From Gammaproteobacteria bacterium (lineage in GTDB: Bacteria > Pseudomonadota > Gammaproteobacteria > Pseudomonadales > JADFDG01), in the NCBI GenBank assembly GCA_018262975.1, contig JADFDG010000008.1:88986-152985 (forward strand): a stretch of 64,000 nt of DNA. The letters are read 5' to 3'. The notes beneath the pieces were generated by a model. The model did not search any database. It saw only the letters and a list, made by a program, of their open reading frames with translations, and was not told the origin of the DNA. Below are positions 43,501 to 60,664 of this stretch, piece after piece. The position numbers and the translations under genes are program-made. Within the stretch, counting starts at the first letter, position 1; every line of letters starts with the position of its first letter.

Positions 43501-43530
43501 CCGCGCGCCAACACCATGCCCGGAGGCCAC

Positions 43531-45618: not shown

Positions 45619-45644
45619 GGGCGAGCAGCGCGTGACATGACCAA

Positions 45645-45660
45645 CGGCAAGATGTGTCGC
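45645..45660 (+). promoter_or_regulatory. Weak RegA-like half-sites upstream of cytochrome c gene
   Basis: CGGC at 45645-45648 and GTCGC at 45656-45660 flank seven bases. These are the two half-sites of the RegA/PrrA motif with wider spacing than in the other candidates. It is about 110 bases before the cytochrome c start. Treat as tentative. Confidence 0.25.
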
Positions 45661-45769
45661 TGGTATCGGGGTTATGCTCGGTCACGCGTCGGGTTCGTGT
45701 GCGTCACGGCTTTACTCCCGGCGACTTAACCACACGACCAACGCTGTCTTTACTTCGAGGAGATTCACC

Positions 45770-46195
45770 ATGAAGAAGTTTGCCCTCGCGATGACACTGT
45801 CTGCCACGGCCCTGCTGGTGGCCTGCGGCAAGCAGGAGACCCCGCCGGCAGCACCGGCCCCCGAAGCCGCCGCCCCGGCAGCAGCGCCAGCGGCTCCGGC
45901 CGCGCCGGCCGAGGCCCCGGCCGTGGCCGAGGCGCCCGCCAACGAACTGGGCGAGAAGACCTACAAGGGCACCTGTTCGATGTGCCACGCCTCCGGCACC
46001 GCCGGTGCGCCGATCCCCGGCAACAAGGCCGACTGGGAAGCGCGCATCGCGCAAGGCAACGACACGCTCTACAAGCACGCGCTCGAAGGCTTCACCGGTG
46101 CGAAGGGCATGATGCCGGCGCGCGGTGGCATGGCATCGCTGAGCGACGAGCAGGTCAAGGCCGCCGTCGATTACATGGTCGCCAAGTCGCAGTAA
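45770..46195 (+). CDS. Lipoprotein cytochrome c (c5-like)
   Basis: A 141-residue monohaem cytochrome. The signal peptide ends in a lipobox (LLVAC, Cys near residue 18), so the protein is anchored to a membrane; a Pro/Ala-rich linker of about 45 residues follows, then a cytochrome domain with CSMCH haem binding and the Met ligand probably in GMMPARGGM, the arrangement of cytochrome c5. GAGGAG precedes the ATG. Between the copper receptor and the second receptor operon it is a plausible electron donor for NosZ, but that is inference. Confidence 0.9.
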   Translation: MKKFALAMTLSATALLVACGKQETPPAAPAPEAAAPAAAPAAPAAPAEAPAVAEAPANELGEKTYKGTCSMCHASGTAGAPIPGNKADWEARIAQGNDTLYKHALEGFTGAKGMMPARGGMASLSDEQVKAAVDYMVAKSQ

Positions 46196-46211
46196 TCCCG
46201 ACCCGCTCCAT

Positions 46212-46275
46212 GTAGAGAGGGGGCCACGCCCCCGATGCTCTTCTTGAGTCATCGGGGGCATGGCCCCCTCTCTGC
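46212..46275. repeat. REPIN-like inverted repeat, copy 7
   Basis: GTAGAGAG-type left arm (46212-46236, CAC loop) and right arm (46251-46275, CAT loop) with a 14-base spacer. The outer foot of the right arm reads GCAG instead of GTAG on the minus strand. It lies between the cytochrome c gene and the RegA-type site of the second receptor operon. Confidence 0.87.
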
Positions 46276-46300
46276 ATAAGGGTTACCACCGAAGTATCGG

Positions 46301-46345
46301 TGCGACGTTATGTCGCAGCCCGCGCTCCGGTGCTCTGCCTAGACT
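46301..46345 (+). promoter_or_regulatory. Candidate RegA site and -10 of the second receptor operon
   Basis: TGCGAC-GTTAT-GTCGCA at 46301-46317 is a perfect palindrome and matches the RegR box GNGRCRTTNNGNCGC at every defined position. TAGACT at 46340-46345, 22 bases downstream, is a likely -10, about 50 bases before the start codon. The layout closely copies the one at 43454-43500. Confidence 0.6.
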
Positions 46346-46394
46346 GCGCGCGATGACCTCGCGCCCGGCTGGTCGGGCACAACCGGAGAGCAGC

Positions 46395-48545
46395 ATGAAG
46401 TCCTCCCGCACACCCCTCCCGCGCGCGCTGACAATGTCATTGCTGGGGCTCGCCATCGGCGCCGCCCACGCCGCCGAAGACGTCACCACCCTCGGCGAGG
46501 TCACCGTCACCGGCACCCGCGAAGCCACGTCCGTGGCCGAGACGCCCGCCACCGTCAACGAGGTGTCCGCCGACACCATCGCCACCAGCCGGCCACAGCA
46601 CCCCAGGGAAGTGCTCAACCAGCTGCCTGGCGTGTGGGTGAGCAACCTCTCCGGCGAAGGGCACTCGACATCGATCCGCCAGCCGCTCACTACCGGCGCG
46701 GTCTACCTGTATCTCGAGGACGGCATTCCCACCCGCTCCACCGGTTTCTTCAACCACAACGCCCTCTACGAGATCAACGTGCCGCAGTCCGGCGGGCTGG
46801 AGGTCATGAAGGGCCCGGGTAGCGCACTGTACGGTTCGGATGCGATCGGCGGCACCATCAACGTGCTGACGCGCACGCCGCCCACCAGCACGGAATTCGA
46901 CGTCACCGCCGAGGGCGGCTCCTGGGGCTGGGGACGCCTGATGGTGAGCGGCGGCGATGCACGCGGCAACGATGCCTGGCGCGCCAGCATCAACGTCACG
47001 CACAGCGATGGCTGGCACGACAGCGCCGGCTACGACCGCCAGGCCGGCACCCTGCGCTGGGACCGCGCCATCGGCGACACCACGCTGGCGAAGACGGTGC
47101 TGTCGTTCTCGCACGTTGACCAGCAGCACGTCGGCAACGTCAACCTCACGGAATTCGAGCGCACGCCGGAGCGCAACAACATCCCGTTTTCCTACCGCGA
47201 GGTCGATGCGCTGCGGGTTTCCACCGCAATCGAAAAGGAAGAGGGCAACACGCTGTGGTCGGTCACGCCCTACCTGCGTGACAACAGCATGGAGATCATC
47301 CCCAGCTGGTCGGTGAGTTACGACCCGACATGGTACGAAACGGGCAACCGCTCGGCGGGCGTGCTGGCCAAGTACCGGCGCGACTTCGCGCCCATGCGCG
47401 CACGCCTGATCGCGGGCGTCGACGTCGACTACAGCCCGGGGTCGCGCGACGAGGACTCCATCAGTCTCATACGCACCACCAATGCCGAGGGTGGCACCAC
47501 CTACGCACTCAACACCGCCGTCGCGCCGGTGCAGATCTTTGACTACGACGTGACCTACACCGGCGTGTCGCCGTACGTGCACGCCGAGTTTTCGCCGCTG
47601 GAACGCCTGCGCGTCACCGCCGGTCTGCGCTACGACGACATGCGCTACGACTACGACAACCGCTTCAACGGCGGCGCGGCCACGGCGACCCAGGGCGTGC
47701 CCGGCACGTTCCCGGCCGGCGGCTGGTACGGCCACGTAGCCAGCACCTCGGTCGACTATTCGCACACCGGCCCGAAACTGGGCGCCACCTGGGCGTTCAG
47801 CGAACGGACCAACGGCTTCATCGCCCTCGCCAACTCCTTCCGCACCCCTTCGGAAGGCCAGGTGTTCCGCGGCAGCCGCGAAAGCACGTCGGTGAAGGCC
47901 CAGGCCGCGGCCGAATCGCTGCTCGACCTCAAGCCGGTGGTGGTGGACAACATTGAGCTGGGCCTGCGTACCCATCCCGGCAAGGCGCGCGTGGATGTCT
48001 CCGTGTACCACATGACCAAGCAGGACGACATTGTCAGCTACACGGACCCGCTGACCACGCAACGCACGGTGGTCAATGCCGGCGAGACCCTGCACCGCGG
48101 CATCGAGCTGGCCGTGCAGGCACCGCTCGCCGACACGCTGTCCGCGCAGCTGGGCTACTCGCATGCGCGCCACAGCTACGAGCAGTGGGTGGTCTCCGGC
48201 ACGGCCGACTACAGCGGCAAGGACATGGAGACTGCGCCGCGCAACATCGCCAACGCGCGACTGGCGTGGACACCGGCGTTCCTCGCCGGCGGTCGCCTGC
48301 AGGTCGAGTACGTTTACCTGGGATCCTACTGGCGCGATGCCGCCAACACCGGCAAGTACGACGGCCATGAACTGGTGAACCTCGCTGCCAACCGTCCCTT
48401 CGGCAAACAGCTGGAAATCTACGCGCGCGTCAGCAACCTGTTCGACCAGCGCTACGCGGAAACCGCCGGCGGTACGGCCGCGGCGCCCACCAACACCGTC
48501 GGCCTGCCGCTGGGCGCCACGCTCGGCGTCACGGCAAGCTGGTGA
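46395..48545 (+). CDS. TonB-dependent outer membrane receptor, first gene of a propeller/Trx/TonB operon
   Basis: A 716-residue receptor with signal peptide (ending AHAA), TonB box region (TLGEVTVTGTRE), plug (RQPLTTGAVYLYLEDGIPT, GLEVMKGPGSALYGSDAIGG) and a 22-strand-type barrel ending in GVTASW with a C-terminal aromatic. The ligand is not readable; the operon and site suggest copper or a copper chelate. GGAGAG precedes the ATG at 46395; the frame is open upstream into the REPIN without signal-peptide character. The next gene starts at the last base of its stop codon (TGATG). Confidence 0.92.
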   Translation: MKSSRTPLPRALTMSLLGLAIGAAHAAEDVTTLGEVTVTGTREATSVAETPATVNEVSADTIATSRPQHPREVLNQLPGVWVSNLSGEGHSTSIRQPLTTGAVYLYLEDGIPTRSTGFFNHNALYEINVPQSGGLEVMKGPGSALYGSDAIGGTINVLTRTPPTSTEFDVTAEGGSWGWGRLMVSGGDARGNDAWRASINVTHSDGWHDSAGYDRQAGTLRWDRAIGDTTLAKTVLSFSHVDQQHVGNVNLTEFERTPERNNIPFSYREVDALRVSTAIEKEEGNTLWSVTPYLRDNSMEIIPSWSVSYDPTWYETGNRSAGVLAKYRRDFAPMRARLIAGVDVDYSPGSRDEDSISLIRTTNAEGGTTYALNTAVAPVQIFDYDVTYTGVSPYVHAEFSPLERLRVTAGLRYDDMRYDYDNRFNGGAATATQGVPGTFPAGGWYGHVASTSVDYSHTGPKLGATWAFSERTNGFIALANSFRTPSEGQVFRGSRESTSVKAQAAAESLLDLKPVVVDNIELGLRTHPGKARVDVSVYHMTKQDDIVSYTDPLTTQRTVVNAGETLHRGIELAVQAPLADTLSAQLGYSHARHSYEQWVVSGTADYSGKDMETAPRNIANARLAWTPAFLAGGRLQVEYVYLGSYWRDAANTGKYDGHELVNLAANRPFGKQLEIYARVSNLFDQRYAETAGGTAAAPTNTVGLPLGATLGVTASW

Positions 48546-49741
48546 TGACCATGCGCGCGCACTGGCTCGCACTGTTCGCCGCCATCGCCCTGCCGGGCGT
48601 GGCAGCGGCCGCCGATGGCATGGCGCCCAGCGCCGCGGCGATGCCGCACGCGCACGCCAGTTCGCTGGCAGTTTCCGTGACGGCCGACGCTGAAGGTGGG
48701 TTGTGGCTGGCACGCGTGCAGGACGGCCAGGTGCGAGTCAGCCGTTCCGTCGATGGCGGCCGCCACTTCGGCGACGAGACCGTGGTGAATGCGGTCGCCG
48801 AGAATGTGCGGGCCGAGGGCCAGAACCGTCCGCAACTGGCCGTGCACGGCGAGCGCGTTGCCGTTGCGTGGTCACAGGCACTGGCCAAGCGCTTCAGCGG
48901 ACACGTGCGCTTCGCGCGATCGATCGATGGAGGCCGCAGCTTCCTGCCGCCGGTGACCATCAACGACGACCTGCAGGAGATCGGCCACGGCTTTACCGCC
49001 ATGGCCATGCACGACGACGGTCGCCTGGCGATTGCCTGGCTGGACTCCCGCGACAGCACGGCCGCCAGGTCTGCGGGCAAGGAGTGGACGGGCAGCAGTC
49101 TCTACTACGTGCAGTCCGCTGACGGTGGCGCGACGTTTTCGCCCAACACGCGGCTGGCGGCGCACACCTGCCAGTGCTGCCGCATCGCCATCGACTTCGC
49201 GCCCGACGGCGTGGCCGTGGCGCTTTGGCGGCACGTGTTCGGCACCGACACCCGCGACTTCGCGATGGCACGCCTGGCACCCGGTAGCCGCATCGTGCGC
49301 GCCAGCGAGGACGGCTGGCACATCGATGGCTGCCCGCACCACGGCGGCGCGCTGCATGTCGATGCACGCGGACGCCGTCACCTTGCCTGGTTCACCGGTG
49401 GCGGCGAGCAGCCCGGCCTTTACTACCGGCGCGCCGACGGCAAGCGCATGACGCGCCCGATGGCCTTCGGCGACGGCGGCGCGCAGGCGGGCCACCCGGC
49501 GGTATTTTCGCGCGGCGACGACGTCTGGCTGGCCTGGCGCGAATACGCGGACAACACCTTCCGCCTGCAGGTGATGGAATCGCGCGATGGCGGCAGGAAA
49601 TGGTCCACGCCGAGCACGCTGGCAAGCGCGACCGGCAACACCGACCTGCCGCTGTTCGTGACCGGCACGGGGGAGCCGCTGCTCTACTGGAATACCCCGG
49701 CCAGCGGCCTGCAACTGTTCAGGCTGGAGGCGCGGCCATGA
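48545..49741 (+). CDS. Exported sialidase-fold beta-propeller protein with Cys/His motifs
   Basis: A 398-residue exported protein (signal peptide to about residue 22). Four Asp-box repeats are visible (SRSVDGGRHF, ARSIDGGRSF, VQSADGGATF, MESRDGGRKW), so it is a six-bladed propeller of the BNR/sialidase fold. The sialidase Arg triad is not evident. Instead it has HTCQCC around residue 200 and DGCPHHGG about 55 residues later, which look like a metal site. It lies between a TonB receptor and a thioredoxin-like gene with overlapping start/stop codons. I infer a periplasmic metal-binding or receptor-partner role. The start could also be the ATG at 48551. Confidence 0.85.
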   Translation: MTMRAHWLALFAAIALPGVAAAADGMAPSAAAMPHAHASSLAVSVTADAEGGLWLARVQDGQVRVSRSVDGGRHFGDETVVNAVAENVRAEGQNRPQLAVHGERVAVAWSQALAKRFSGHVRFARSIDGGRSFLPPVTINDDLQEIGHGFTAMAMHDDGRLAIAWLDSRDSTAARSAGKEWTGSSLYYVQSADGGATFSPNTRLAAHTCQCCRIAIDFAPDGVAVALWRHVFGTDTRDFAMARLAPGSRIVRASEDGWHIDGCPHHGGALHVDARGRRHLAWFTGGGEQPGLYYRRADGKRMTRPMAFGDGGAQAGHPAVFSRGDDVWLAWREYADNTFRLQVMESRDGGRKWSTPSTLASATGNTDLPLFVTGTGEPLLYWNTPASGLQLFRLEARP

Positions 49742-50244
49742 ACACGCGCGCGGCAACGCGGTGGCTGCTGGCCAGCCTGCTGCTGGCCGGCACCACGGCA
49801 CTGGCTTCGCCGCCACCAGCCCCTGCAGCACAGGTGCAACCGATGACGCGTGGCAGCCTGGCGAAGATCGTGGCGGCCCGGCCCGGCAAGGCGTTCATCG
49901 TGGCCTACTGGTCGGTGGGCTGCGCGCATTGTCCGAAGGAATTGCGCACGCTCGGCGAACTGAAGCGTCGCCACCCGCAACTGGATGTCGTGCTGGTCTC
50001 CACCGACACGCCCGCGGAGGCGCAGGAAGCGGCGCAACTGGCCGCGGGGTTCGGCCTCGGCCAAGCAGAGCAATGGGTCTTCGCCGCCGATGCACCGGAA
50101 ATGCTGCGCGCGGAAATCGATCTGCGCTGGCATGGCGAACTGCCGCGCACGGCGTTCTATGACCGCCAGCATCGCGTCCAGGCGGTGTCGGGCGTGGTGC
50201 CCGCACAGCGCCTGCAGGCATGGATCGAGGCCAACGTCCCATGA
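49738..50244 (+). CDS. Exported thioredoxin-like (TlpA-type) protein
   Basis: A 168-residue periplasmic protein with an N-terminal signal sequence (WLLASLLLAGTTALA) and a thioredoxin fold. The active site WSVGCAHCPKE (CXXC) lies near residue 60, and the cis-Pro strand is LPRTAFYD. Such proteins reduce disulfides or deliver copper in the periplasm. It overlaps the propeller gene before it and tonB after it by ATGA, so the four genes form one translationally coupled unit. A role in keeping the CQCC/CPHH motifs of the propeller reduced is inference. Confidence 0.88.
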   Translation: MNTRAATRWLLASLLLAGTTALASPPPAPAAQVQPMTRGSLAKIVAARPGKAFIVAYWSVGCAHCPKELRTLGELKRRHPQLDVVLVSTDTPAEAQEAAQLAAGFGLGQAEQWVFAADAPEMLRAEIDLRWHGELPRTAFYDRQHRVQAVSGVVPAQRLQAWIEANVP

Positions 50245-50936
50245 CTGCGCAGGCCTCGATAACCGCATCGCCGGATTGCGGCCTGGGGGCGGCGGCGCGG
50301 CCACCGCTGCGGACGCATTTCGGCCGGATCCTCGCCGTGGCGCTGGTCGCGCACGCGGCGTTGCTGGCCATCGAGGTTTCACCCTGGGAGACGCCGGGCG
50401 CCATGCAACGCATGGCGGTGAAACTGATCTCTGCCGGGGCTGCGCCGGCCACCACCGCGCCTGCGCCGGCAGAACCTGCGGCACGCCCGGAACCACGACC
50501 GCGCGCCGAACCGGTGGCAGTGCCACCGCCGTCAGTACCGGCCGCGACGAGCGCGCCGGTGCAGGCAACCGACGCCTTGCCCGATACCGGCATCGTGGCC
50601 GGCAGCGCGCCAGCCGAACCGGCCGCCGCGCCGGCCAGCGAGCCACTGACCGAGGCCCGCGTCGATACCGCCTACCTGGACAATCCGCGCCCGGGCTACC
50701 CGCCGATGTCACGCCGCCTGGGCGAAGAGGGCACCGTGCTGCTGCGCGTCACCGTGAACGCGCAGGGCCAGGCCACGTTCGTCGCCGTGGAGAAAAGTTG
50801 CGGACACGAGCGCCTCGATGCCGCCGCGCGCGCCGCCGTGCGCCAGTGGCGCTTCATTGCCGCGCGGCGCGGCGACACGACGGTCGCATCGACCGTGCTG
50901 GTGCCAGTCACGTTCGCACTGGCCGGCGGCCGCTGA
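50241..50936 (+). CDS. tonB: TonB energy-transducing protein (dedicated copy)
   Basis: A 231-residue TonB. One N-terminal membrane helix (FGRILAVALVAHAALLAIEV with the His typical of TonB helices), a Pro/Ala-rich periplasmic spacer (about 60-150) and a C-terminal domain starting at YLDNPRPGYPPMSRRLGEEG, with LLRVTVNAQGQ, LDAAARAAVRQWRF. No exbB or exbD is in the window. As last gene of the receptor-propeller-Trx operon it is probably a dedicated TonB for the nearby receptors. It converges with the nosL-like gene, 28 bases apart. Confidence 0.92.
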   Translation: MTAQASITASPDCGLGAAARPPLRTHFGRILAVALVAHAALLAIEVSPWETPGAMQRMAVKLISAGAAPATTAPAPAEPAARPEPRPRAEPVAVPPPSVPAATSAPVQATDALPDTGIVAGSAPAEPAAAPASEPLTEARVDTAYLDNPRPGYPPMSRRLGEEGTVLLRVTVNAQGQATFVAVEKSCGHERLDAAARAAVRQWRFIAARRGDTTVASTVLVPVTFALAGGR

Positions 50937-50964: not shown

Positions 50965-51555
50965 TCAGTGGTGATGGTGTCCCGCTGCCGGCGCGGCCAC
51001 CACCGCGGCAGCAGCCTCGCTGAACGACAGTACGCGTCCACCGTTGTTCGCCACGAAGGCATCGGCACTTTCCCTGCGCGCGAACGCCGGCAGCGCATCA
51101 ACGCGCATCGGCCCCGTCACCTTCGAGCCTTGCACGTACCAGGCTGCGCCGGCCTGCACCCAGCCATTGCCGGGGTAGTCGGTAACCCAGGCCACCATCA
51201 CGTCGCCCGCGGCCACCGGTGCCCTGCCGCGTGACACGCGGTCCACGAACACGAAGAACTCCCGCGGCGAATCGAAGAAGCGCACGCTGCCATCGCGCAG
51301 TGCCAGCTGTGCCGCCCATTTCGGGAAGCGCGCCGGGTACATGCCGCACACCGGACAGCGTGCATCCGCCGGCACCGCACGGGCAGCAAACCGCGCTGCC
51401 TCCGTTGCTCCACCTTCCAGTACCACGGGGGCGGCAAGCGCCTGCACCACGGCCACGGGCGCGTCCTGCTGCGCACAGTGCACGAGGCCAGCCACCAGGC
51501 TGCCCACCGAAAACAGCATCCCGGCCAGCAGGTAATGACGTGCGGCAACGGCCAT
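50965..51555 (-). CDS. Second NosL-like protein with CPVCGM motif and His-rich tail
   Basis: A 196-residue protein with an N-terminal membrane or signal segment (YLLAGMLFSVGSLVAGLVH) and a NosL-type domain: DARCPVCGMYPARFPKWAAQL carries the C-X2-CGM copper motif, then SVRFFDSPREFFVFV and the ANNGGRVLSFSEA end. The C-terminus is GHHHH. NosL proteins hold Cu(I) and pass it to NosZ maturation. It is the last gene of the minus-strand nos operon, 3 bases after the unknown protein. Its motif differs from the canonical nosL gene at 52.2 kb, so the two may divide copper delivery tasks. Confidence 0.82.
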   Translation of the reverse strand: MAVAARHYLLAGMLFSVGSLVAGLVHCAQQDAPVAVVQALAAPVVLEGGATEAARFAARAVPADARCPVCGMYPARFPKWAAQLALRDGSVRFFDSPREFFVFVDRVSRGRAPVAAGDVMVAWVTDYPGNGWVQAGAAWYVQGSKVTGPMRVDALPAFARRESADAFVANNGGRVLSFSEAAAAVVAAPAAGHHHH

Positions 51556-51558
51556 GGG

Positions 51559-52203
51559 TCAGTCCTCCAGCGCGAAGCGCGGATTGGCGAGCAAGGCGTC
51601 CAGCAGCGCGCGCAGGTTCGCGGCCGGATCCGCGCCGGGCCGCGTCAGCGGATCAGCATGGACGGCGCCATCGGCGCGGTGCAGGTGATTGGGAACGGTC
51701 GCGAGGTGCGGATGCACGGGCGCGGTATCGATGCCCGCCTCTCGCGGCGCGCCGCCGGCCCCGACGGCACGCCAGCGCAGCGAGTACGCGTCCGCTGCCG
51801 CGACGTGCACCTCCACCGTCACCCCGGATTTCAGAGTGAACGACAGTGCGTCCTGCGACACCTGCGATGGACCGGCGAGCGCGCCGACATATTCGCCCTC
51901 CACCATCGCCTGCAGCACGAGGTGCCAGGGCTGTGCCTCGCCGTCGTCGCGCCCCTTGGCCGCGATCATGCGGCGCACCGACTCGCGCGTTTCGTGCAGC
52001 ACGCGCAACGCCAGCACGTGCTCCCAGGTCGGGTGCTCGGCGCAGTCGCCCGCGGCAATGCGACCTGCGAGGGCGGCGTCGCTGTCCACGCCGTAATGGC
52101 GCAGCACCGCCTTGTGCGCCTCACGCAGCTCCAGCGAGAGCCGCGCCAGGGACTCGAGGCGCTGGGCGGCCTCCCACTCGACGTTGTCGAAGAAATCAGC
52201 CAC
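51559..52203 (-). CDS. Unrecognised protein between two NosL genes
   Basis: I do not recognise this 214-residue protein with confidence. There is no signal peptide or membrane segment. Residues 1-105 look helical (EWEAAQRLESLARLSLELR; TWEHVLALRVLHETRESVRRM); residues 120-190 look beta-rich and contain IDTAPVHPHLATVPNHLH and RADGAVHADPLTRPG, with five His spread over 25 residues, a pattern vaguely like DUF6516/TumE-type domains. It starts with GTG at 52203, with GGAGG six bases upstream overlapping the nosL stop. Its place inside the nos operon suggests a role in NosZ biogenesis or control. Confidence 0.8.
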   Translation of the reverse strand: MADFFDNVEWEAAQRLESLARLSLELREAHKAVLRHYGVDSDAALAGRIAAGDCAEHPTWEHVLALRVLHETRESVRRMIAAKGRDDGEAQPWHLVLQAMVEGEYVGALAGPSQVSQDALSFTLKSGVTVEVHVAAADAYSLRWRAVGAGGAPREAGIDTAPVHPHLATVPNHLHRADGAVHADPLTRPGADPAANLRALLDALLANPRFALED

Positions 52204-52212
52204 GCGAACCTC

Positions 52213-52743
52213 CTACATCACGCTGTCGTGCAGCGCGCCACCGTCGAGTACGGCCATGTCGGCAGTGACCCCGGCGAACGGGTAAACCTTGCCGCCATGT
52301 TCGGCGGCGAACTTGTCGGCATCCGCCTGCCGCGCGAAGCTGGCAATGGTCGGACCCATCGATCCGTGGCGCTTGCTGCCCACCACGTAGAACGCCTGGC
52401 GCGCATCGATCCACTGGCCCAGCGGGTTGTCCCAGTCGGCCTTGCCCATGTCCTGCACGTACATGACCCGTACCACGCGCACCTGCTCGGGGTTCAGGTA
52501 GACGTTGAACATCTCGACGGTATCGCAGAACCAGTCCGGCTCCGCGCGATTGGCGTAGTGGATCTGCGCCTTCGGCCCCGGATAGTCCGCCAGCAGCATG
52601 CCGTCGAGCGAGCAGGAGGTCGATGCGGTGATTTCCTGCGGGCCGCTCGCCCCGCCCTCGCTGCCCGACTGGCCGCAACCGGCCAGCATTGCCGCCACCA
52701 GCAGCGCCAGCAACGGCGCCTGCCACGAAGAAAGCTGTTTCAT
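52213..52743 (-). CDS. nosL: NosL copper-binding lipoprotein
   Basis: A 176-residue lipoprotein (lipobox MLAGC at about 20-24) of the NosL family, which binds Cu(I) and works with NosDFY to assemble the CuZ site of NosZ. The family block DGMLLADYPGPKAQIHY is clear, as are FVFV-equivalent YLNPEQVRVVRVMYVQDMG and GSMGPTIASFA. Only one Cys (STSCSLDGM) precedes the Met, unlike the CXXCGM of the second NosL-like protein. The start overlaps the nosY stop (ATGA). Confidence 0.92.
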   Translation of the reverse strand: MKQLSSWQAPLLALLVAAMLAGCGQSGSEGGASGPQEITASTSCSLDGMLLADYPGPKAQIHYANRAEPDWFCDTVEMFNVYLNPEQVRVVRVMYVQDMGKADWDNPLGQWIDARQAFYVVGSKRHGSMGPTIASFARQADADKFAAEHGGKVYPFAGVTADMAVLDGGALHDSVM

Positions 52744-53555
52744 CGACGGAACCTCCAGGTTGCAACGGCGAGCGGCGCGACGATCCAGCCGGCCATCACC
52801 GACGCGAGCAGCGCCGGCGATGCCAGCGCCTCGGGAAACACGGTGGCCAGCCCGTACAGGGTGCGGACCTCCGCCAGCGAGAACATGTTGAGCACGCGGA
52901 ACACGTCGGCCGGGTTGAGCAGCAGCAGATAGGGGAATGCCTCGCCGCCGTAACTGCCACCGGTCACCACCAGCGCGCCGAGCAGCAGCAGGTCGAACAC
53001 CAGCACGAAGAAGAACCACAGCGCGATCGCGAGGCCCGATGCACGCGTGCGGTCGGCGGCGAACACCGACACCATCACCGCCAGGCTCAGGAATGCCATG
53101 CCCAGCAACACCGAACTCGCCATGAAGCCGACATAGTGGAACAACGCGCTGCCGTCGAGCTCGGCGGCCAGCAGCATGGCCACCAGACCGAAACCGGCCA
53201 CCGTCGAGGCCGCCAGCGCACCGGCCAACCCCAGGTACTTGCCGAGCAGCAGCTCGAAGCGGGTGATGGGCATGGACAGCAACAGGTCGAGCGAACCGCG
53301 CTCGCGCTCACCGACGATGGCATCGAAGCCGAGCATCAGCGCGATCAGCGGCACCAGGTAGATGACCAGGCTCACCAGACTGGCAATGGTGAACTCGATG
53401 GAGCGGAACCCCACGGTGCCTTGCTGGGCGCCGCCGAAATAGGCGATCACCAGCGCGAAGGCGGTGAACACCAGCGCCACCGCGAGCACCCAGCGATTGC
53501 GGATGCGGTCGCGGAACTCCTTGGCGGCAATGCTCCAGACCTGCGTGAATTCCAT
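52740..53555 (-). CDS. nosY: NosY ABC transporter permease
   Basis: A 271-residue ABC-2 type permease with six membrane helices, part of the NosDFY complex needed for copper-sulfur cluster assembly in NosZ. The N-terminal VWSIAAKEFRDRIRNRWVLAVALVF and the ERERGSLDLLLSMPITRFELLLGKYLG coupling region are typical. The start at 53555 (MEFTQVW) is set by homology; the frame continues upstream through the nosF end. It lies 13 bases after nosF and overlaps nosL by ATGA. Confidence 0.93.
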   Translation of the reverse strand: MEFTQVWSIAAKEFRDRIRNRWVLAVALVFTAFALVIAYFGGAQQGTVGFRSIEFTIASLVSLVIYLVPLIALMLGFDAIVGERERGSLDLLLSMPITRFELLLGKYLGLAGALAASTVAGFGLVAMLLAAELDGSALFHYVGFMASSVLLGMAFLSLAVMVSVFAADRTRASGLAIALWFFFVLVFDLLLLGALVVTGGSYGGEAFPYLLLLNPADVFRVLNMFSLAEVRTLYGLATVFPEALASPALLASVMAGWIVAPLAVATWRFRR

Positions 53556-53568
53556 GGCTACCCCGCTC

Positions 53569-54483
53569 TCAGTCCGCGAATCCGAAGAACACGTCCTCGA
53601 GCGACGGCTCGCGCACGTGGATGTCCAGCACCTCGTTGCGCAGCGCGCTGACCGCATCCAGCACCTGCAGCTTGGCCGTGCGCGGGCAGGTCAGCACCAG
53701 CTCCTCACCGCTGCCGCTGATGCCGGCCAGCGGCAAACCCTGCAGGGCCGCGCGCACGGTATCCGCCACACCCGGGCGCAGCACCACGCGCAGGGTGAGC
53801 GGCAGCGCCATGTCCTCGCGCAACTGCTGCACGGTACCGCGGGCGCGCACCTTGCCAGCGGCCATGATGGCCAGCCGGTCCACGCGCTCCTGGATCTCGG
53901 CGAGGATGTGCGAGGTGATCACCACGGTGACGCCCTCGCTGCGCAGTTCGCGGAGAATGGCGTAGAAACTGCGGATGGCCTCGGGATCCAGGCCGGTGGT
54001 GGGCTCGTCGAGGAACAGCAGGCGCGGCTTGCCGAGCAGGGCCTGCGCGAAACCCAGGCGCTGGCGCATGCCCTTGGAATATTCCACCACCCGGCGGTTG
54101 GCGGCGTGGGCCAGGCCGACCCGCGCCAGCACGGCGGCGCAGCCATCGGCGGGCACGCCCTTCAGGCGCGCGAAGAACACCAGCGTTTCCAGCCCGGTGA
54201 GGTTGTCGTAGAGCACGACGTTTTCGGGCAGGTAGCCGATGCCGCGGCGCACGCGGCGGAAGTCACTCCCGCGCACCGGCACGCCATCGATGAGGATGTC
54301 GCCGGAGGTCACCGGCACCAGGCCCAGCATCATCTTGAACAGCGTGCTCTTGCCGGCGCCGTTGTGGCCGATCAGGCCGAACAGCTCGCCGCGCCCGATG
54401 TCCAGGTCGACGCCGTCCACCGCGTGGATGGTGCCGTAGTGGCGCGTGACGCCACGCACCGAAATCATCGCCTCGCCTGTCAT
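53569..54483 (-). CDS. nosF: NosF ABC transporter ATPase
   Basis: A 304-residue ATP-binding subunit that powers NosDFY. Walker A GHNGAGKST, the Q-loop region LPENVVLYDNLTG, the signature YSKGMRQRLGFAQALLG, Walker B LLFLDEPTTGLDP and the H-loop ITSHIL are all intact. The C-terminal 90 residues form the accessory domain found in this subfamily. The start overlaps the nosD stop (ATGA); nosY follows after 13 bases. Confidence 0.95.
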   Translation of the reverse strand: MTGEAMISVRGVTRHYGTIHAVDGVDLDIGRGELFGLIGHNGAGKSTLFKMMLGLVPVTSGDILIDGVPVRGSDFRRVRRGIGYLPENVVLYDNLTGLETLVFFARLKGVPADGCAAVLARVGLAHAANRRVVEYSKGMRQRLGFAQALLGKPRLLFLDEPTTGLDPEAIRSFYAILRELRSEGVTVVITSHILAEIQERVDRLAIMAAGKVRARGTVQQLREDMALPLTLRVVLRPGVADTVRAALQGLPLAGISGSGEELVLTCPRTAKLQVLDAVSALRNEVLDIHVREPSLEDVFFGFAD

Positions 54484-55787
54484 TGCGCCTCCGCCTTCAC
54501 CGGGAACTGCTTGCCCAGCCACGCCTGCCAGCCGGGGTGGGCCGGCTGCATGCGCGGCGCCGGGTCCACCACGCTGGGCGCACGCAGCAACGGGAACTGC
54601 TGGCCCACCAGGCGCAGCGCCTGCACCGCCGGGCTGGCCAGCAGCAGTTTCATCATCGGGTGCCGCCAGGACAGGCGGTCCACCATGTCGTTGGCCTCGT
54701 AGGGCACATCGCCGGCACCGTCGCCGTTGCGGTCCCAGCCCACGTAGTTGCTCCAGTGGTTGCCGGCCTCGCCGCCCCACGGCATGTCCCTGGCGCCGAC
54801 ATAGCGCACCTGTTCGCGGTTGGCGATGAAGTCGTTGTCGTCCACGACGTTGTTCTTGGAACCTGCCCACAGGTGCACGCCGACGCCGTTGTCGACCACC
54901 AGGTTGCCGCGCAGCGTGTTGTATTCCGCGTCGTAGATGAAGAAGCCGCGCGCATTGCCGGCCACGACGTTGTTCTCCACCACCGCGTCCTGGATGGTGC
55001 GCAGCATGATGCCATGGTCGGAGTTCCCCCAGGCGCGGTTGTTGCGCACCGTCTGGTAGCGCACTTCCATCAGCGCCAGGCCACCGCGGTTGTAGTAGGC
55101 CTCGTTGTCCTCCCACAGGTTGCGGTAGGAGTTCATGTAGTGGGTGCCGTAGCGACTGTGGTGCAGGCGATTGCCGCGGAACACCGCGTCGTGCGAAACA
55201 TCCACGTAGATGGCATCGCGCACGAAGCCGATGTTGTTGCGCTCGATGCGCGCGCGCCGCGTGTTGTAGAGCTGGATGCCATTGCCGCGCTGGGATGACG
55301 CGTAGTCGCGCTTGCCGGTGATCAGGTTGTCGGCCACCACCACGTCGTTGGCCTTCTCGATCCACAGGCCGAACAGGTTGTAGACGAGATCGCAGTGGCG
55401 CACCACCGTGCGGTCGGCGCCCGGCTGCACGTAGATGCCGGCGTTCTGGGCCAGCAGGCTGTCGCCGGAATCGCGGACGATGAACCCTTCGATGGTCACG
55501 TCGGTGGCAACAACGCGGATGGTGTCACCGGACAGGCCACCGGACAGCGTCGGCCGGCCGACGCCGCGCAGGGTGACCGGCTTGTCGATACGCAGGTTCC
55601 CGCGGTAATGGCCGCGCGCCACCTCCACCACGTCGCCGGGCGCGGCGGCATCGAGTGCCGCCTGTATGGATCCGCCGGGCGCCACCGGGATCGTCGCGGC
55701 CGTGGCGGACACGCAGGCGACCAGCAGCAGCACTGCCGCGCCGCCAACCCGGCGCCGCGCACCGGACATCCACCCCGCCACCAACAT
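54480..55787 (-). CDS. nosD: NosD periplasmic copper-processing protein
   Basis: A 435-residue periplasmic right-handed beta-helix protein (signal peptide ending ATAA). Many imperfect parallel-helix rungs of the type NAGIYVQPGADRTVVRHCDL and NNVVAGNARGFFIYDAEYNT are visible, and CASH/NosD features such as NHWSNYVGWDRNGDGAGDVPY. It captures copper-loaded NosL and delivers to NosZ. The start at 55787 has GGGAG 7 bases upstream; an ATG at 55769 would give a more compact signal peptide. nosR ends 30 bases upstream. Confidence 0.94.
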   Translation of the reverse strand: MLVAGWMSGARRRVGGAAVLLLVACVSATAATIPVAPGGSIQAALDAAAPGDVVEVARGHYRGNLRIDKPVTLRGVGRPTLSGGLSGDTIRVVATDVTIEGFIVRDSGDSLLAQNAGIYVQPGADRTVVRHCDLVYNLFGLWIEKANDVVVADNLITGKRDYASSQRGNGIQLYNTRRARIERNNIGFVRDAIYVDVSHDAVFRGNRLHHSRYGTHYMNSYRNLWEDNEAYYNRGGLALMEVRYQTVRNNRAWGNSDHGIMLRTIQDAVVENNVVAGNARGFFIYDAEYNTLRGNLVVDNGVGVHLWAGSKNNVVDDNDFIANREQVRYVGARDMPWGGEAGNHWSNYVGWDRNGDGAGDVPYEANDMVDRLSWRHPMMKLLLASPAVQALRLVGQQFPLLRAPSVVDPAPRMQPAHPGWQAWLGKQFPVKAEAQ

Positions 55788-55817: not shown

Positions 55818-58466
55818 TCAGAGTACCAGCAAGCCCATCGACTTGAGCAGGATGAAGAACACCGCTCCTATGAGCAGGTTCTTGAAGCCCACGTAACTGA
55901 TCATGTCCATCCAGGTGGCGACGCGGTAATGACGCTGCCACCAGGGGCCTTCCTTCACGTAGGGCCGCGCACCCATGCGCACCAGTACCTCGAAGAAACT
56001 CCAGCCTACCCACGCGAAGATCACTGCGGCTGCATCGAGCGTGCCGTTGACGGCCAGCACCAGCACCAGCGCCGCCGCGAGCAGCACCGCGAAACCGGAT
56101 GCCTGTAGCCACGCATTGCGGCGGATACCCACCAGGCTCCACGGCCACAGGTGATCCTGCAGCTCGGCGAGCACGAAGCGCACCAGCGACGCCTGGTGTG
56201 CGTACGGGAGGTCGACCGGATCGGAAGGCATGCGCGGGTCGACGTGGCTGCGCGCGTGCACCGGCTTCGCGACCGGTGCCGGCTCGTCGATGTTCACCAC
56301 CGGGATGAAGTAGCCGTCGGCGGCGATCTTCGTCAGCGGCAGGCCCTTCTTCTCGCGCTGCTTCCGCTCCTGCGCCAGCGGCGGACAGGCGTGGTCGTCG
56401 GTGTACAGCACCATGCAGTCCAGGCACAGCAGGCATTCCCGCTGGTCGATGCGACCGTCACGGTCAATGGCCAGCGAGCCGCAGCCCACCGCGCAGGCCG
56501 TGCAGGTGTTGCACTCCTGCTTGCGCTTCAGCCCGAACCAGCGGAACGTCGATGGCATGGCGAGGCCGGCGCCCAGCGGGCACAGGTACTTGCAGAACGG
56601 CCGCTCGATCAGGATCGACATGCCGAGGATCACCGCCACGAACAGCGTGTACGGCCAGGCGCGGTTGAGCACGCCCACCAGGAAGGTGGTCTTGAACGGC
56701 TCGATCTCCGCCATCTTCTCGGCCAGGCCCATCGAGAAGAACGACACCGCCAGCAGCACGAAGAACGCCACGTACTTCACCCACTTGAGGCGGTCGTGCC
56801 ATTGCCTGGGCAGCTTCGACTGGAAGCGGCGCAAGCCGATCCAGCCGGCCACCTTGTAGATCGCTTCCTGCAACGAGCCGAACGGGCACAGCCAGCCGCA
56901 GAACAGCCCGCGTCCCCACAGGAACACCGTCACGAAGATGAAGATCCAGAAGATGAAGATGAACGGGTCGGTGAGGAACAGCTCCCAGGTCCACTGGAAC
57001 AGCAGCGCGTGGAACCAGGTGAGCACCTGCGTCACCGAGGGCTGCGCCATCAGGTGGAAACCGATGAAGCCGATGCTCAGCACCCACGCCGTGTACTTGA
57101 AGGCGTTCACCGGCCACTTGTTGTGGCGGTTGGAGGCACGCGTCAGGCGGTCGCGGAACGCGTAGACAGTGGCCACGCCCAGCAGCAGCGCGGTGAACAG
57201 CGCGATCTCCAGCGCGCGATCCTTCCAGATCTTCACCCACGCCGCCTGCGGCCGCACCACTTCCGGGCGGCCACCCTTCAGGTACTTGCCCGGCAGCCAG
57301 TATTCGCTGTCGAAGTTGGCGAACTCGCGGTGGCCGGTCTTCTTGTCGAGCTTGTTGCCGAGGAACACCAGGCTCCAGGGCAGCGCCGCGCTGAAGTTCT
57401 CGCCGCGGACAATGAAGATGGACGACTCGGTGAACGCCGGCGCCCCCTTTGCCTCCACGCTGTACAGGTTCAGGTAATCGGTGTCGCGGAAGGTGAAGGT
57501 GTCGACATCCTGCGCCACCTGCACGCGATCAAAGATGCCGCCACGCACGAAGCCCGAGCCCTTGAAGGTGGTGCGCCCGTTGGCCACGAGGAAGATGGCG
57601 TGATCGTTCGGACCCAGGCCCGACATCAGCCGCTGCCAGTTTTCCTGGCCGAGGACACTGCGACCGATCGTGGGTTCGTTGAGGTAACCGAAATGGATGT
57701 CGATGAGCGGCTCGCGGGTGTCGGTCTCGCCGACGTCTGCGGCACTGACGGTCAACTGGCGGATGCTGCCCTCGTCGACCAGCGCATCCCAGTCCAGCAG
57801 TGCGCCGGCTGGCAGGAACTCGGCCTTCGGGCGCGGCTCGGCCTTGACGATGCCGACCTGGCGCGCAATGAGGTAGGCGCTGCGCATCACCACCTGGTTC
57901 TGGGCGATCACCGTGACGGTGGCACCGCTGATGGCATCGATACCGATATAGCCGCCGCTGGCGCGTGCCTTGCCGATCTCGACCTTGTCCCAGGCCTTCT
58001 TGCCGAGGAACTGCATGATGAATTTCGTGAGCTCCGCCTCGGGAATGCCCACCAGCAGGATCGGTTCGCTGTGCTTGAGGATCTTCACGCCGACGATGGT
58101 GCCGGTCGCATCCATGCCCATCAGCGTGACCACCGGCTTGCCGGAGTACGCGGGGATGTCGACGACGTCGGTGGACAGGAATACATAGCCAACCAGCACC
58201 GGCTGGCCATCACGCGTCTGGTAGGCCTCGACGTAGGCGGGCCGGCCCTTGCGCGGCGAGAAACTGTCGGCGCCCGGCATTACGTCGGCACAAGGCAGCC
58301 AGTTGCACATCTGCGGGTCGGTGGCCAGTTGCGGTGGCAGCGGCGCCTCGTACGAGGAGGCATTTGCCAGCGGCGCGATGCCGAGCGCCAGCAGCAACAG
58401 CGCAAGGCCCACGATCAATCCGCGTGCACCCTGCAGTGCGTGCGCATCCCGGTTCGTGCAGTTCAT
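55818..58466 (-). CDS. nosR: NosR polytopic flavo-iron-sulfur protein
   Basis: NosR is needed for nos expression and feeds electrons to NosZ. The 882-residue protein has a signal sequence, a periplasmic FMN-binding domain with the covalent flavin Thr in ISGATVT (about residue 200), five or six membrane helices, the two CXXXCP motifs CGWLCP and CKYLCP, and two ferredoxin-type clusters (CNTCTACAVGC, CLLCLDC) on the cytoplasmic side. Length is slightly above the Pseudomonas protein. AGGAGGAAAG lies 7 bases before the ATG. It has its own promoter region because a terminator separates it from nosZ upstream. Confidence 0.95.
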   Translation of the reverse strand: MNCTNRDAHALQGARGLIVGLALLLLALGIAPLANASSYEAPLPPQLATDPQMCNWLPCADVMPGADSFSPRKGRPAYVEAYQTRDGQPVLVGYVFLSTDVVDIPAYSGKPVVTLMGMDATGTIVGVKILKHSEPILLVGIPEAELTKFIMQFLGKKAWDKVEIGKARASGGYIGIDAISGATVTVIAQNQVVMRSAYLIARQVGIVKAEPRPKAEFLPAGALLDWDALVDEGSIRQLTVSAADVGETDTREPLIDIHFGYLNEPTIGRSVLGQENWQRLMSGLGPNDHAIFLVANGRTTFKGSGFVRGGIFDRVQVAQDVDTFTFRDTDYLNLYSVEAKGAPAFTESSIFIVRGENFSAALPWSLVFLGNKLDKKTGHREFANFDSEYWLPGKYLKGGRPEVVRPQAAWVKIWKDRALEIALFTALLLGVATVYAFRDRLTRASNRHNKWPVNAFKYTAWVLSIGFIGFHLMAQPSVTQVLTWFHALLFQWTWELFLTDPFIFIFWIFIFVTVFLWGRGLFCGWLCPFGSLQEAIYKVAGWIGLRRFQSKLPRQWHDRLKWVKYVAFFVLLAVSFFSMGLAEKMAEIEPFKTTFLVGVLNRAWPYTLFVAVILGMSILIERPFCKYLCPLGAGLAMPSTFRWFGLKRKQECNTCTACAVGCGSLAIDRDGRIDQRECLLCLDCMVLYTDDHACPPLAQERKQREKKGLPLTKIAADGYFIPVVNIDEPAPVAKPVHARSHVDPRMPSDPVDLPYAHQASLVRFVLAELQDHLWPWSLVGIRRNAWLQASGFAVLLAAALVLVLAVNGTLDAAAVIFAWVGWSFFEVLVRMGARPYVKEGPWWQRHYRVATWMDMISYVGFKNLLIGAVFFILLKSMGLLVL

Positions 58467-58705: not shown

Positions 58706-60664
58706 TCAACCTTCCACGATCATGCGCGAACGCATCTCGAGGTGCAGCGCATGGCAGAAGTGCGTGCAGTAGCACCAGTACACGCCCGGCTTGTCGGCCT
58801 TGAAGGTGACCGACGCCGTTTCCTGCGGGTTGACGATGAAGTTGATGTTGTACTTCGGAATCGCGAAGCCGTGCGTCAGGTCCTCGATGTTGTCGAGGTT
58901 GGTGAGGACCAGCGTGACCTCGTCGCCCTTCTTCACCGTGAACTCGCGCAGGCTGAATGCCGGCGCCTGCGACGTGATCTTCACCGTGACCTTGTTCCCG
59001 TTGCGGAACACGCCGGACTCCTTCGGGTCCTTGATCGCGTTCGGGAAGTCATCCAGGTTGTAGATCTGCTTCGTCTTGATGATGTCGCGCTTGAAGATGA
59101 TGAAGTCGTGCGGTTCCGGGCGCACCGGGTGATCCGCGACCAGCACCATCTTCTCGCCGGAAATGTCGATCAGCTGCTCGGTCTCGGCGTGCAGCGGACC
59201 CACCGGCAGGAAGCGGTCCTTGGAGAACTTGCAGCCAACACACAGCCACTTGCCGTCGGCAGCGCGCGTCTCGGACTGCGAGGCGTTGATGTGGCCCGGC
59301 TGGTAGGTGACGTCCAGGCGGTCAACAACGTACTTGGCGTTCTTGTCACCGGCGTGGAACTTGATGGCGGCTTCGATGTTCCACTTGACCACCTGGCTGT
59401 CGAGGAACAGCGTGGTATAGGCGTTGCCGCGGCCGTCGAATGCGGTGTGCAACGGCCCCAGCCCGATCTCGACCTCGGCCACGATGGCCTTGTCCGCGTT
59501 GTCGAGCTTGCCGTCGAACCAGTCGAGCACCTTCTGCAGCTCGATCACGGTCGCGGTCGGGTTCAGCTTGCCGGCGCAGATGAAGTACTTCGCGTCCGGC
59601 GAGGCGTTCACGCCGTGCGGGTTCTTCGGCACCGACACGTAGGCAACCAGCGCGGTCTTCGGATCGGCGTTGGCGGCACGGGTGGCGTCGACCACCGGCA
59701 CCTTCGAATCGCCGTAGGTCTTCGTCTTGCCGGCCTTCACCGCTTCCTCGATGCGGGCGATGTTGAAGAACAGGCAGGCATCGCGCTCTGCGGACATCAT
59801 GTCCTCGTAGTGCGCGCCCATCTCGGTGTTGTACTGGTTGGTGGCAGCCAGCTTGCCGTCGAACGACGTGGCGACCAGGTCGCAGTTGCCGTCGATCAGC
59901 GCCTGCCAGCGCACTTCCATGGTCTCGGCGTCGACGCAGGAGAACAGCGACCGGTACTTGGTCGCGTCGGCCGCGTCCTTGCCGTTGTTCGGCAGCGGGA
60001 TGCTGAACTCGGAGCCGCAGAATACGCGGGTGGTGTAGTTGATGGCCGGATCGACCGGGTCGGCCTTGTCCGGGAAGATGCCGTGGAAGCCCTGGACGTT
60101 GGGCAGCTCGGTGATCTTGTCGCAGGTGAAGGTATCGAGGCGCACACGGGCGATGCGGCTGTTGATCTTGTCGTTGATCCAGGCATAGCGGCCGTCGTAG
60201 TTGCCGTCCTTGTAGGAGGCATGGGTGTGGTGGGTATCGGCCACCGTGTACTTCAGGCTGCCGTCGGGCCTGGTGCCCATGATCTTCCTGGATTCGTTGG
60301 TGATGCCCCAGCCCACCAGGGCGTCCGGGGTGAACACCGGTACGCGGTGGATCTCGCGGCCGGAGGGCAGGCCGAGGATGCGCATGTCGCCGGTATGGCC
60401 GCCGCTCCAGATGCCGTAGTAGGTGTCCAGCTCACCGGGCTTGAGGTGCGGCGAGCCCGCACCACCGTGCGCCGGGGCGGCAGCATGGCCGTCGCCCGCC
60501 GGGGCAGCAGCACCACCTTCTTCCTTGCGGCAACCGGCCAGACCCATCGACAGGCCCGCGCCCACCAGGCCGGCCACGCCGGCCGCACCGAGGAAACTGC
60601 GACGGCCGGCGTTGGGGACGCTGTCGGCGGTCATTTCCGGATTCTTGCTCTGCCCTTCGCTCAT
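58706..60664 (-). CDS. nosZ: Nitrous-oxide reductase NosZ (Tat type)
   Basis: NosZ reduces N2O to N2 in the periplasm. The 652-residue precursor has a twin-arginine leader (GRRSFLGAAG) typical of clade I. The propeller carries CuZ ligands in DTHHTH; the C-terminal cupredoxin has CuA ligands in LTHGFAI and CYCTHFCHALHLEMR (C-x3-C-x3-H-x2-M). The Trp usually seen between the CuA cysteines is His here. The Tat leader ends in LAGC, a lipobox (Cys45), followed by a 30-residue Ala/Gly/His-rich linker, so the enzyme may be membrane-anchored. AAGGAG precedes the ATG. It is divergent from regBA. Confidence 0.96.
   Translation of the reverse strand: MSEGQSKNPEMTADSVPNAGRRSFLGAAGVAGLVGAGLSMGLAGCRKEEGGAAAPAGDGHAAAPAHGGAGSPHLKPGELDTYYGIWSGGHTGDMRILGLPSGREIHRVPVFTPDALVGWGITNESRKIMGTRPDGSLKYTVADTHHTHASYKDGNYDGRYAWINDKINSRIARVRLDTFTCDKITELPNVQGFHGIFPDKADPVDPAINYTTRVFCGSEFSIPLPNNGKDAADATKYRSLFSCVDAETMEVRWQALIDGNCDLVATSFDGKLAATNQYNTEMGAHYEDMMSAERDACLFFNIARIEEAVKAGKTKTYGDSKVPVVDATRAANADPKTALVAYVSVPKNPHGVNASPDAKYFICAGKLNPTATVIELQKVLDWFDGKLDNADKAIVAEVEIGLGPLHTAFDGRGNAYTTLFLDSQVVKWNIEAAIKFHAGDKNAKYVVDRLDVTYQPGHINASQSETRAADGKWLCVGCKFSKDRFLPVGPLHAETEQLIDISGEKMVLVADHPVRPEPHDFIIFKRDIIKTKQIYNLDDFPNAIKDPKESGVFRNGNKVTVKITSQAPAFSLREFTVKKGDEVTLVLTNLDNIEDLTHGFAIPKYNINFIVNPQETASVTFKADKPGVYWCYCTHFCHALHLEMRSRMIVEG

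What the first reader, a model, noticed from the sequence alone, without database searches (positions are those of the whole stretch)
51559..52203. Unknown 214-residue protein embedded in the nos operon
It lies between nosL and the second NosL-like gene, has no export signal, and has a helical N-terminal half and a His-rich C-terminal half with a remote look of DUF6516. Strong translation signals (GGAGG, GTG) and tight packing show it is a real gene. A cytoplasmic component in NosZ maturation or nos regulation is not part of the known set.
Basis: partly seen in the sequence, partly recalled or inferred. Interest (0 to 1): 0.6.

Follow-up and report, generated by a model that had tools for sequence, protein, structure and literature searches.

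The report
Toxin-antitoxin-like pair in nitrous-oxide operon
A previously unnamed gene inside a bacterial nitrous-oxide-reduction operon is a fusion of two small genes that sit in the same place in many other denitrifying bacteria, one of them a relative of a bacterial growth-stopping toxin, which suggests that a toxin-antitoxin pair was recruited into the pathway that destroys this greenhouse gas.

Summary
The 214-residue gene is real and lies between two nosL genes. It is a fusion: in 80 of 80 related loci the halves are two adjacent ORFs (about 87 and 116 aa), mostly overlapping by 4 bases (51 of 80), directly after a nosL gene. The C half is a relative of TumE (formerly DUF6516): 58 of 59 members match Pfam TumE at E<=0.1, best 3.7e-8; hhalign against nine non-nos TumEs gives E 5.8e-10; the model has the published TumE layout; the D...HxH motif is kept. 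The N half is an unnamed helical family in the antitoxin position; homology to TumA is only hinted at. Both halves are under purifying selection and follow nos phylogeny; none was found on plasmids, phages or viral contigs. Best reading: a TumE-type toxin-antitoxin pair domesticated as a cytoplasmic, probably RNA-directed, part of some nos operons. My searches found no paper linking the two.

The parts
51559..52203 (-). the finding: fused gene, 214 aa, N partner + TumE-like domain
   Evidence: ORF; fusion shown by two-ORF relatives
52209..52214 (-). AGGAGG ribosome-binding site, 5 nt before GTG, overlapping the TAG stop of the upstream nosL gene
   Evidence: read from sequence
51940..52203 (-). 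N domain (residues 1-88): helices 10-37, 42-51, 56-82; equals the separate ~87-90 aa ORF of relatives
   Evidence: model; alignments
51559..51933 (-). C domain (residues 91-214): TumE-like, two helices and seven strands; equals the separate ~116 aa ORF of relatives
51679..51729 (-). D159...H164...H173-x-H175, the superfamily motif (D...HxH)
52213..52743 (-). first NosL-type lipoprotein gene (here 'NosLb'), directly upstream; the same NosL type is directly upstream in 80 of 80 relatives
50965..51555 (-). second NosL-type gene, directly downstream; also downstream in 37 of 80 relatives
52740..53657 (-). nosY (ABC-2 permease; true start probably inside this ORF)
53569..54504 (-). nosF (ATPase; start chosen by eye)
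54480..55787 (-). nosD
55818..58466 (-). nosR (FMN_bind, Fer4_5)
58706..60664 (-). nosZ, N2O reductase

Best explanation
The gene is a natural fusion of a two-gene module that belongs to the nos (N2O reduction) operons of some Beta- and Gammaproteobacteria. SHOWN: the C half is a member of the TumE superfamily by sequence and by predicted fold; the N half is a separate small helical protein encoded directly upstream and mostly in translational-coupling distance; the pair sits directly after a nosL gene in every relative examined, is under purifying selection and is inherited with nos. INFERRED: the pair descends from a TumE-type toxin-antitoxin module. The N half binds the C half and holds it in check; the C half keeps the nuclease-like D...HxH site and acts on RNA in the cytoplasm. 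It has been domesticated, so the N-C complex, not a free toxin, is the working form, tuning translation or mRNA of nos (or of the cell while it respires N2O). Fusion in this genome makes a permanent 1:1 complex, which fits a domesticated role better than an addiction module.
For: TumE homology: 5 of 5 first relatives match PF20126, best 1.2e-7; 58 of 59 at E<=0.1, best 3.7e-8; 29 of 59 match NCBIfam TumE at E<=1, best 2.3e-5; hhalign E 5.8e-10. Fold: two helices and a sheet with seven strand segments, pLDDT 90 and 94, as the TumE paper describes. Motif: Y140, D159, P171, H173, H175 invariant in 59 of 59 nos forms and 9 of 9 other TumEs; D...HxH in 24 of 24 further PF20126 places scored. Partner upstream and overlapping, as in the closest TumA-TumE pairs. 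nosL-N-C order in 80 of 80 loci; Mantel r C-NosF 0.83, N-NosF 0.71, N-C 0.74, 0 of 500 permutations as high, 49 loci; dN/dS medians 0.15 and 0.21. No match on 72,556 plasmid or 50,697 phage records; none confirmed in viral contigs.
Against: N versus TumA is not significant by hhalign (probability 1.3% and 3.3%) and by hmmsearch nos-N scores no better than shuffled controls, so 'antitoxin' rests on position, size and helix layout. TumE's own RNase activity is called unproven by its authors. The H that is invariant in the nine closest TumEs (window position 163) is L or V in all 59 nos forms, with H at 164 instead, so chemistry may have changed. The pair is absent from most NosZ genomes (5 of 61 have it), so it is not needed for N2O reduction as such. 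Nothing here tests toxicity, binding or any effect on nos.
Confidence: 0.45

Rival explanations
1. Cytoplasmic maturation factor: the fold has been reused and the invariant His/Asp residues bind metal or an apo-protein; the pair serves copper or NosL/NosZ handling before export.
For: Invariant H164, H173, H175, D159, D184 in 59 of 59; always next to a nosL gene; best fold look-alikes of the C half include frataxin/CyaY and secretion chaperones.
Against: Those fold matches are Z 7.0 or less (C half) or 7.4 or less (whole model), which the tool calls common arrangements. H173 and H175 are shared with toxin TumEs, so they need no metal role specific to nos. The known Cu route (NosL, NosDFY) acts outside or in the membrane (recalled).
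Confidence: 0.25
2. Selfish or guard toxin-antitoxin module that has lodged in nos operons and punishes loss of the operon.
For: Antitoxin-first overlapping layout and retained motif; present in some and absent from other closely related nos operons: five operons with NosZ 66-80% identical to the window's lack it.
Against: Never found outside the nosL slot (80 of 80), not on plasmids or phages, phylogeny follows nos, and fusion in the window ties toxin to antitoxin, which would disarm an addiction module.
Confidence: 0.2
3. Chance ORF, decaying gene or unrelated passenger with no function.
For: The window protein alone has no family match at a curated cut-off and no recognisable relative in the rest of its order sample (1 of 293 genomes, itself, apart from five weak matches of which the two inspected were chance).
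Against: Relatives in 80 loci, purifying selection, conserved slot, confident fold.
Confidence: 0.03

Closest known systems
TumE toxin (Pfam PF20126, NCBIfam NF045777, formerly DUF6516), Durairaj et al. 2023, PMC10584680 (passages read)
   Same: Sequence profile, predicted fold (two helices on a seven-stranded sheet), D...HxH motif, two-gene layout with the partner upstream.
   Different: Locked into nos operons; motif reads [RG]-I-D-T-A-P-x-H...N-H-x-H instead of [RG]-[YFW]-D-N...H-x-H; partner not recognisable as TumA; toxicity not tested. The paper's text does not mention nos, nitrous or denitrification.
TumA-TumE pairs of cyanobacterial plasmids and Gammaproteobacteria (PADLOC candidate PDC-M44A/B)
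   Same: The nine TumE proteins compared in A8 are of this type, the closest seen; partner upstream and near or overlapping; C half matches PDC-M44B in 18 of 59 members, best 2.3e-5.
   Different: N half matches no PDC-M44A; not in nos context; some on conjugative plasmids.
Cis-fused TumE proteins (subcluster 5 of the TumE paper)
   Same: One polypeptide with a TumE domain fused to a proposed antitoxin domain (passage).
   Different: Only the passage was read; I did not compare sequences. In the nos family 80 of 80 relatives are unfused.
Known nos accessory proteins NosL, NosX, NosR, NosD, NosF, NosY
   Same: Same gene cluster.
   Different: No sequence relation seen; this one appears cytoplasmic and belongs to none of these families.

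Membership tests
TumE superfamily (PF20126) | profile match above curated cut-off | tested here: inconclusive
   Window protein itself: 11.8 bits, cut-off 23.4. Relative L019-type: 28.1 bits, over the cut-off; 58 of 59 C proteins at E<=0.1.
TumE superfamily (PF20126) | profile-profile similarity to known TumEs | tested here: met
   hhalign of 59 nos C proteins against 9 TumEs, E 5.8e-10, probability 96.6%
TumE superfamily (PF20126) | fold: two helices packed on an antiparallel sheet with seven strands | tested here: met
   secondary structure of two models, pLDDT 90 and 94.4 against the paper's wording; no coordinates superposed
TumE superfamily (PF20126) | D...HxH motif (my own reading of the alignments; catalytic role not proven in print) | tested here: met
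   59 of 59; 24 of 24 other TumE places that were scored
TumE superfamily (PF20126) | toxicity / inhibition of translation | not testable with these tools
   needs expression assay
TumA antitoxin | encoded next to and upstream of the TumE gene | tested here: met
   80 of 80 relatives in the order nosL-N-C
TumA antitoxin | sequence similarity to known TumA | tested here: inconclusive
   hhalign probability 1.3% and 3.3% on the core; core score 16.65 against a maximum of 14.24 in 100 column shuffles and 9.3 reversed, but hmmsearch no better than shuffled controls; no PDC-M44A match
TumA antitoxin | neutralises the toxin by binding | not testable with these tools
   needs co-expression or pull-down
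nos accessory gene | constant linkage to nos genes | tested here: met
   80 of 80 loci have nosL upstream; 78 of 80 also nosD/F/Y/Z/R, the other two are contig ends; in a class sample 5 of 5 carriers also have NosZ
nos accessory gene | needed for or affecting N2O reduction | not testable with these tools
   needs deletion and assay

The most novel reading that the evidence does not exclude
A toxin-antitoxin module has been domesticated into a dedicated RNA-level controller of nitrous-oxide respiration: a TumE-type ribonuclease domain, held by its partner, cuts or blocks specific messages (nos or competing denitrification mRNAs) in response to a cytoplasmic signal such as copper, redox state or NosZ supply. 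It would be a new regulatory class in denitrification and the first TumE with a metabolic job.
Probability: 0.3. Interest if true: 0.8.

Novelty: new variant of a known kind. Interest (0 to 1): 0.6.

Why it matters
N2O reductase is the only known enzyme sink for N2O (recalled). Many cultured denitrifiers used in research (Thauera, Aromatoleum, Azoarcus, Zoogloea, Thiobacillus; record titles) carry an unexamined two-gene module in the nos operon whose second protein is kin to a translation-stopping toxin. If it controls nos expression, it is a new handle on when bacteria emit or consume N2O; if it is a guard module, it explains how an operon keeps itself. Either outcome can be tested directly with a two-gene deletion.

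Tried and rejected
Single-protein scan of genome contigs found nothing (594 pattern stretches, 0 relatives); tblastn on plasmids found nothing. Order-wide search: 6 of 293 genomes at E<=0.01; apart from the window's own genome these are weak; I opened two (L003, L005) and both matches lie across peptide-synthetase or ABC-transporter type genes; three were not opened.

MAFFT could not align N-only and C-only rows together with the fused protein; four read-through rows fixed this. Fold searches of the fused model and of the C half found no clear relative in the PDB or viral library; look-alikes (frataxin, capping protein, secretion chaperones, phage MotA) have Z of 7.4 or less and were not used. 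The N half was not modelled alone. Sequence search of solved structures: nothing significant for N, C or TumE. Weak N matches to MukF (18 of 60 members at E<=1, best 1.1e-4) were judged helix look-alikes and not followed.

Attempt to survey the order of the Betaproteobacterial carriers failed; G503's order gave 0 of 36 genomes and holds no known positive, so it says nothing. I did not scan a collection with the N half, so 'N never without C' is untested. Six of the 86 confirmed loci were not returned and were not seen. Of 80 loci, four (L027, L091, L094, L096) were left out of alignments because of odd starts or frames; near-duplicates were removed to leave 59; L070's long C protein is in A3 but was left out of A4.

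Literature: ten searches, listings only except PMC10584680, of which I read passages. None of the listings linked TumE/DUF6516 to nos; subscription papers are not covered.

Full report
OBSERVATION. The ORF at 51559-52203 (-) exists, starts with GTG, and encodes 214 residues. An AGGAGG that overlaps the stop of the upstream gene lies 5 nt before the GTG; 9 nt and 3 nt separate the gene from its neighbours. Both neighbours are NosL proteins, and the strand continues upstream with nosY, nosF, nosD, nosR and nosZ.

IT IS A FUSION. The protein alone has no family match at a curated cut-off: Pfam TumE at E 0.25 only, NCBIfam none. A search of 369 genomes of the class found matches in four other genomes; in each the match falls into two neighbouring ORFs, one for residues 1 to about 87 and one for about 91 to 211, and each lies in a nos cluster after nosL. 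A profile of the C parts then found 86 loci among 84,980 species genomes; 80 were returned. In 80 of 80 loci the order on one strand is nosL, N ORF, C ORF; 78 of 80 also show nosD, F, Y, Z or R, and the other two are short contigs. In 80 of 80 the two halves are separate ORFs; the C start overlaps the N stop by 4 bases in 51, lies at -1 in 7 and at +2 to +5 in 19; three are odd (-17, 88, 93) and may hold frame errors. The median distance from the nosL stop to the N start is 7 nt. The window copy is the only fusion among these 81. Its C half has lost the start codon as well as the intervening stop (sequence), which argues against a simple sequencing slip, but I could not check reads.

CAVEAT ON THE 80 OF 80. 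The scan pattern ([IV]DTAP[LV]H[PRK]xL) came from nos members, so it would miss distant TumEs elsewhere. As a less biased check, a 59-row profile run over 369 genomes rang in 7: five nos carriers, one non-nos TumE at E 3e-5 (G407) and one short stretch with stops at E 0.002 (G480). All five carriers have NosZ; NosZ was found in 61 of 369 genomes, so 0 of 308 genomes without a NosZ match carry the nos form. Leaving out the window's own genome, 4 of 4 carriers falling among the 60 other NosZ genomes of 368 has a chance of about 6e-4 (hand arithmetic).

THE C HALF IS TumE-LIKE. 58 of 59 C proteins match Pfam TumE (formerly DUF6516) at E<=0.1, best 3.7e-8; 29 of 59 match NCBIfam TumE at E<=1, best 2.3e-5; hhalign against nine non-nos TumEs gives E 5.8e-10. 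The model of the window protein (63 rows, pLDDT 90, pTM 0.70) shows a C domain of two helices and seven strands; a model of the Aromatoleum C protein alone gives pLDDT 94.4 and pTM 0.88 with the same layout, one strand being only two residues long. The TumE paper describes two helices on a seven-stranded antiparallel sheet. Y140, D159, P171, H173 and H175 are invariant in 59 nos forms and 9 TumEs, and 24 of 24 other non-nos TumE places from a Pfam search have a D...HxH pattern, typically [RG]-Y-D-N...H-x-H (two fragments with stops and one short fragment were set aside, and in several rows the simple pattern starts too early). The nos form differs: I for the aromatic residue, T for N, L/V at position 163 where the nine closest TumEs have H, and its own invariant H164, W144, D184, N196 and P208.

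THE N HALF. It has no Pfam match and no credible NCBIfam match. The model gives helices 10-37, 42-51 and 56-82. The closest TumE genes are also preceded by a small partner, overlapping or within 17 nt (L127, L099, L100, L129-L132), annotated TumA in L129 and L133. The nos N motif YG...G...EHPxYExYL looks like the TumA motif YG.SxxEF...G...DFxEW, but statistics do not settle it: hhalign probability 1.3% and 3.3% on the core. The core score of 16.65 exceeds 100 of 100 column shuffles (maximum 14.24) and the reversed control (9.3), yet hmmsearch scores of nos N are like those of shuffled sequences. I treat kinship with TumA as open.

SELECTION AND INHERITANCE. Median dN/dS is 0.149 for N (64 pairs) and 0.209 for C (72 pairs). 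In 49 loci with all five genes, distances correlate: N-C 0.74, C-NosF 0.83, C-NosL 0.77, N-NosF 0.71, against NosL-NosF 0.84; 0 of 500 permutations reached any of these. In a NosD tree of 60 operons, presence of the pair is clustered but needs at least 5 changes (shuffled mean 9.4, 0 of 500 as low); the window sits among Thiobacillus and Aromatoleum operons, and operons without the pair occur close by (L173, ten lacking operons inspected). So the pair is an old, optional part of one kind of nos operon. It need not be last: in Paraburkholderia-type clusters nosR follows it (L079, L090, L092, L093, L095). No match was found in 72,556 plasmid records (two queries) or 50,697 phage records, and none was confirmed in viral contigs.

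HOW IT PROBABLY WORKS. Shown: TumE superfamily, partner upstream, nos-locked, selected. Known from the literature (passages): TumE proteins of six gammaproteobacterial species stop growth of E. coli and are neutralised by co-expressed partners; one inhibits protein synthesis; its RNase activity is proposed, not proven; one subcluster is fused to a proposed antitoxin domain. Inferred: the nos C half acts on RNA and the N half restrains it. Fixed location, co-inheritance, absence from mobile elements and a fused copy speak for domestication rather than a selfish module. A maturation role (metal or chaperone) remains the main rival. I put 0.45 on the RNA-acting domesticated pair, 0.25 on maturation, 0.2 on a guard module.

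NOVELTY. A new nos-specific branch of a known superfamily with an unnamed partner family. The TumE paper's text does not mention nos, nitrous or denitrification, and no listing or 124 linked the two; figures and subscription papers were not seen.

Noticed in passing
window 43516-50936 (+): Opposite-strand set next to the nos operon: two TonB-dependent receptors, a cytochrome c, a BNR-repeat protein, a thioredoxin-like protein and TonB. It could be a copper-uptake set for NosZ (inferred, not tested).
   Followed up: partly
window 52213-52743 and 50965-51555: Two NosL paralogues flank the finding; a second NosL also follows the pair in 37 of 80 related loci. The downstream one has a CPVCGM motif, the upstream one CSLDGM. 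Why two are kept is unexplained.
   Followed up: no
L079, L090, L092, L093, L095: In Paraburkholderia/Trinickia nos clusters nosR lies downstream of the pair, so the pair is internal to the gene cluster there.
   Followed up: no
L100 and L177 (both genome G489): One genome has a TumA-TumE pair of the non-nos type and, on another contig, a nos operon without the nos pair.
   Followed up: no
L129, L131, L100, L127: TumA and TumE pairs match PADLOC candidate defence genes PDC-M44A and PDC-M44B (down to 3e-43 and 7e-67), so this PADLOC candidate and TumE-TumA appear to be the same thing.
   Followed up: partly
nos N family (alignment A5): 18 of 60 members match NCBIfam MukF weakly (best 1.1e-4); probably helix composition, not followed.
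   Followed up: no
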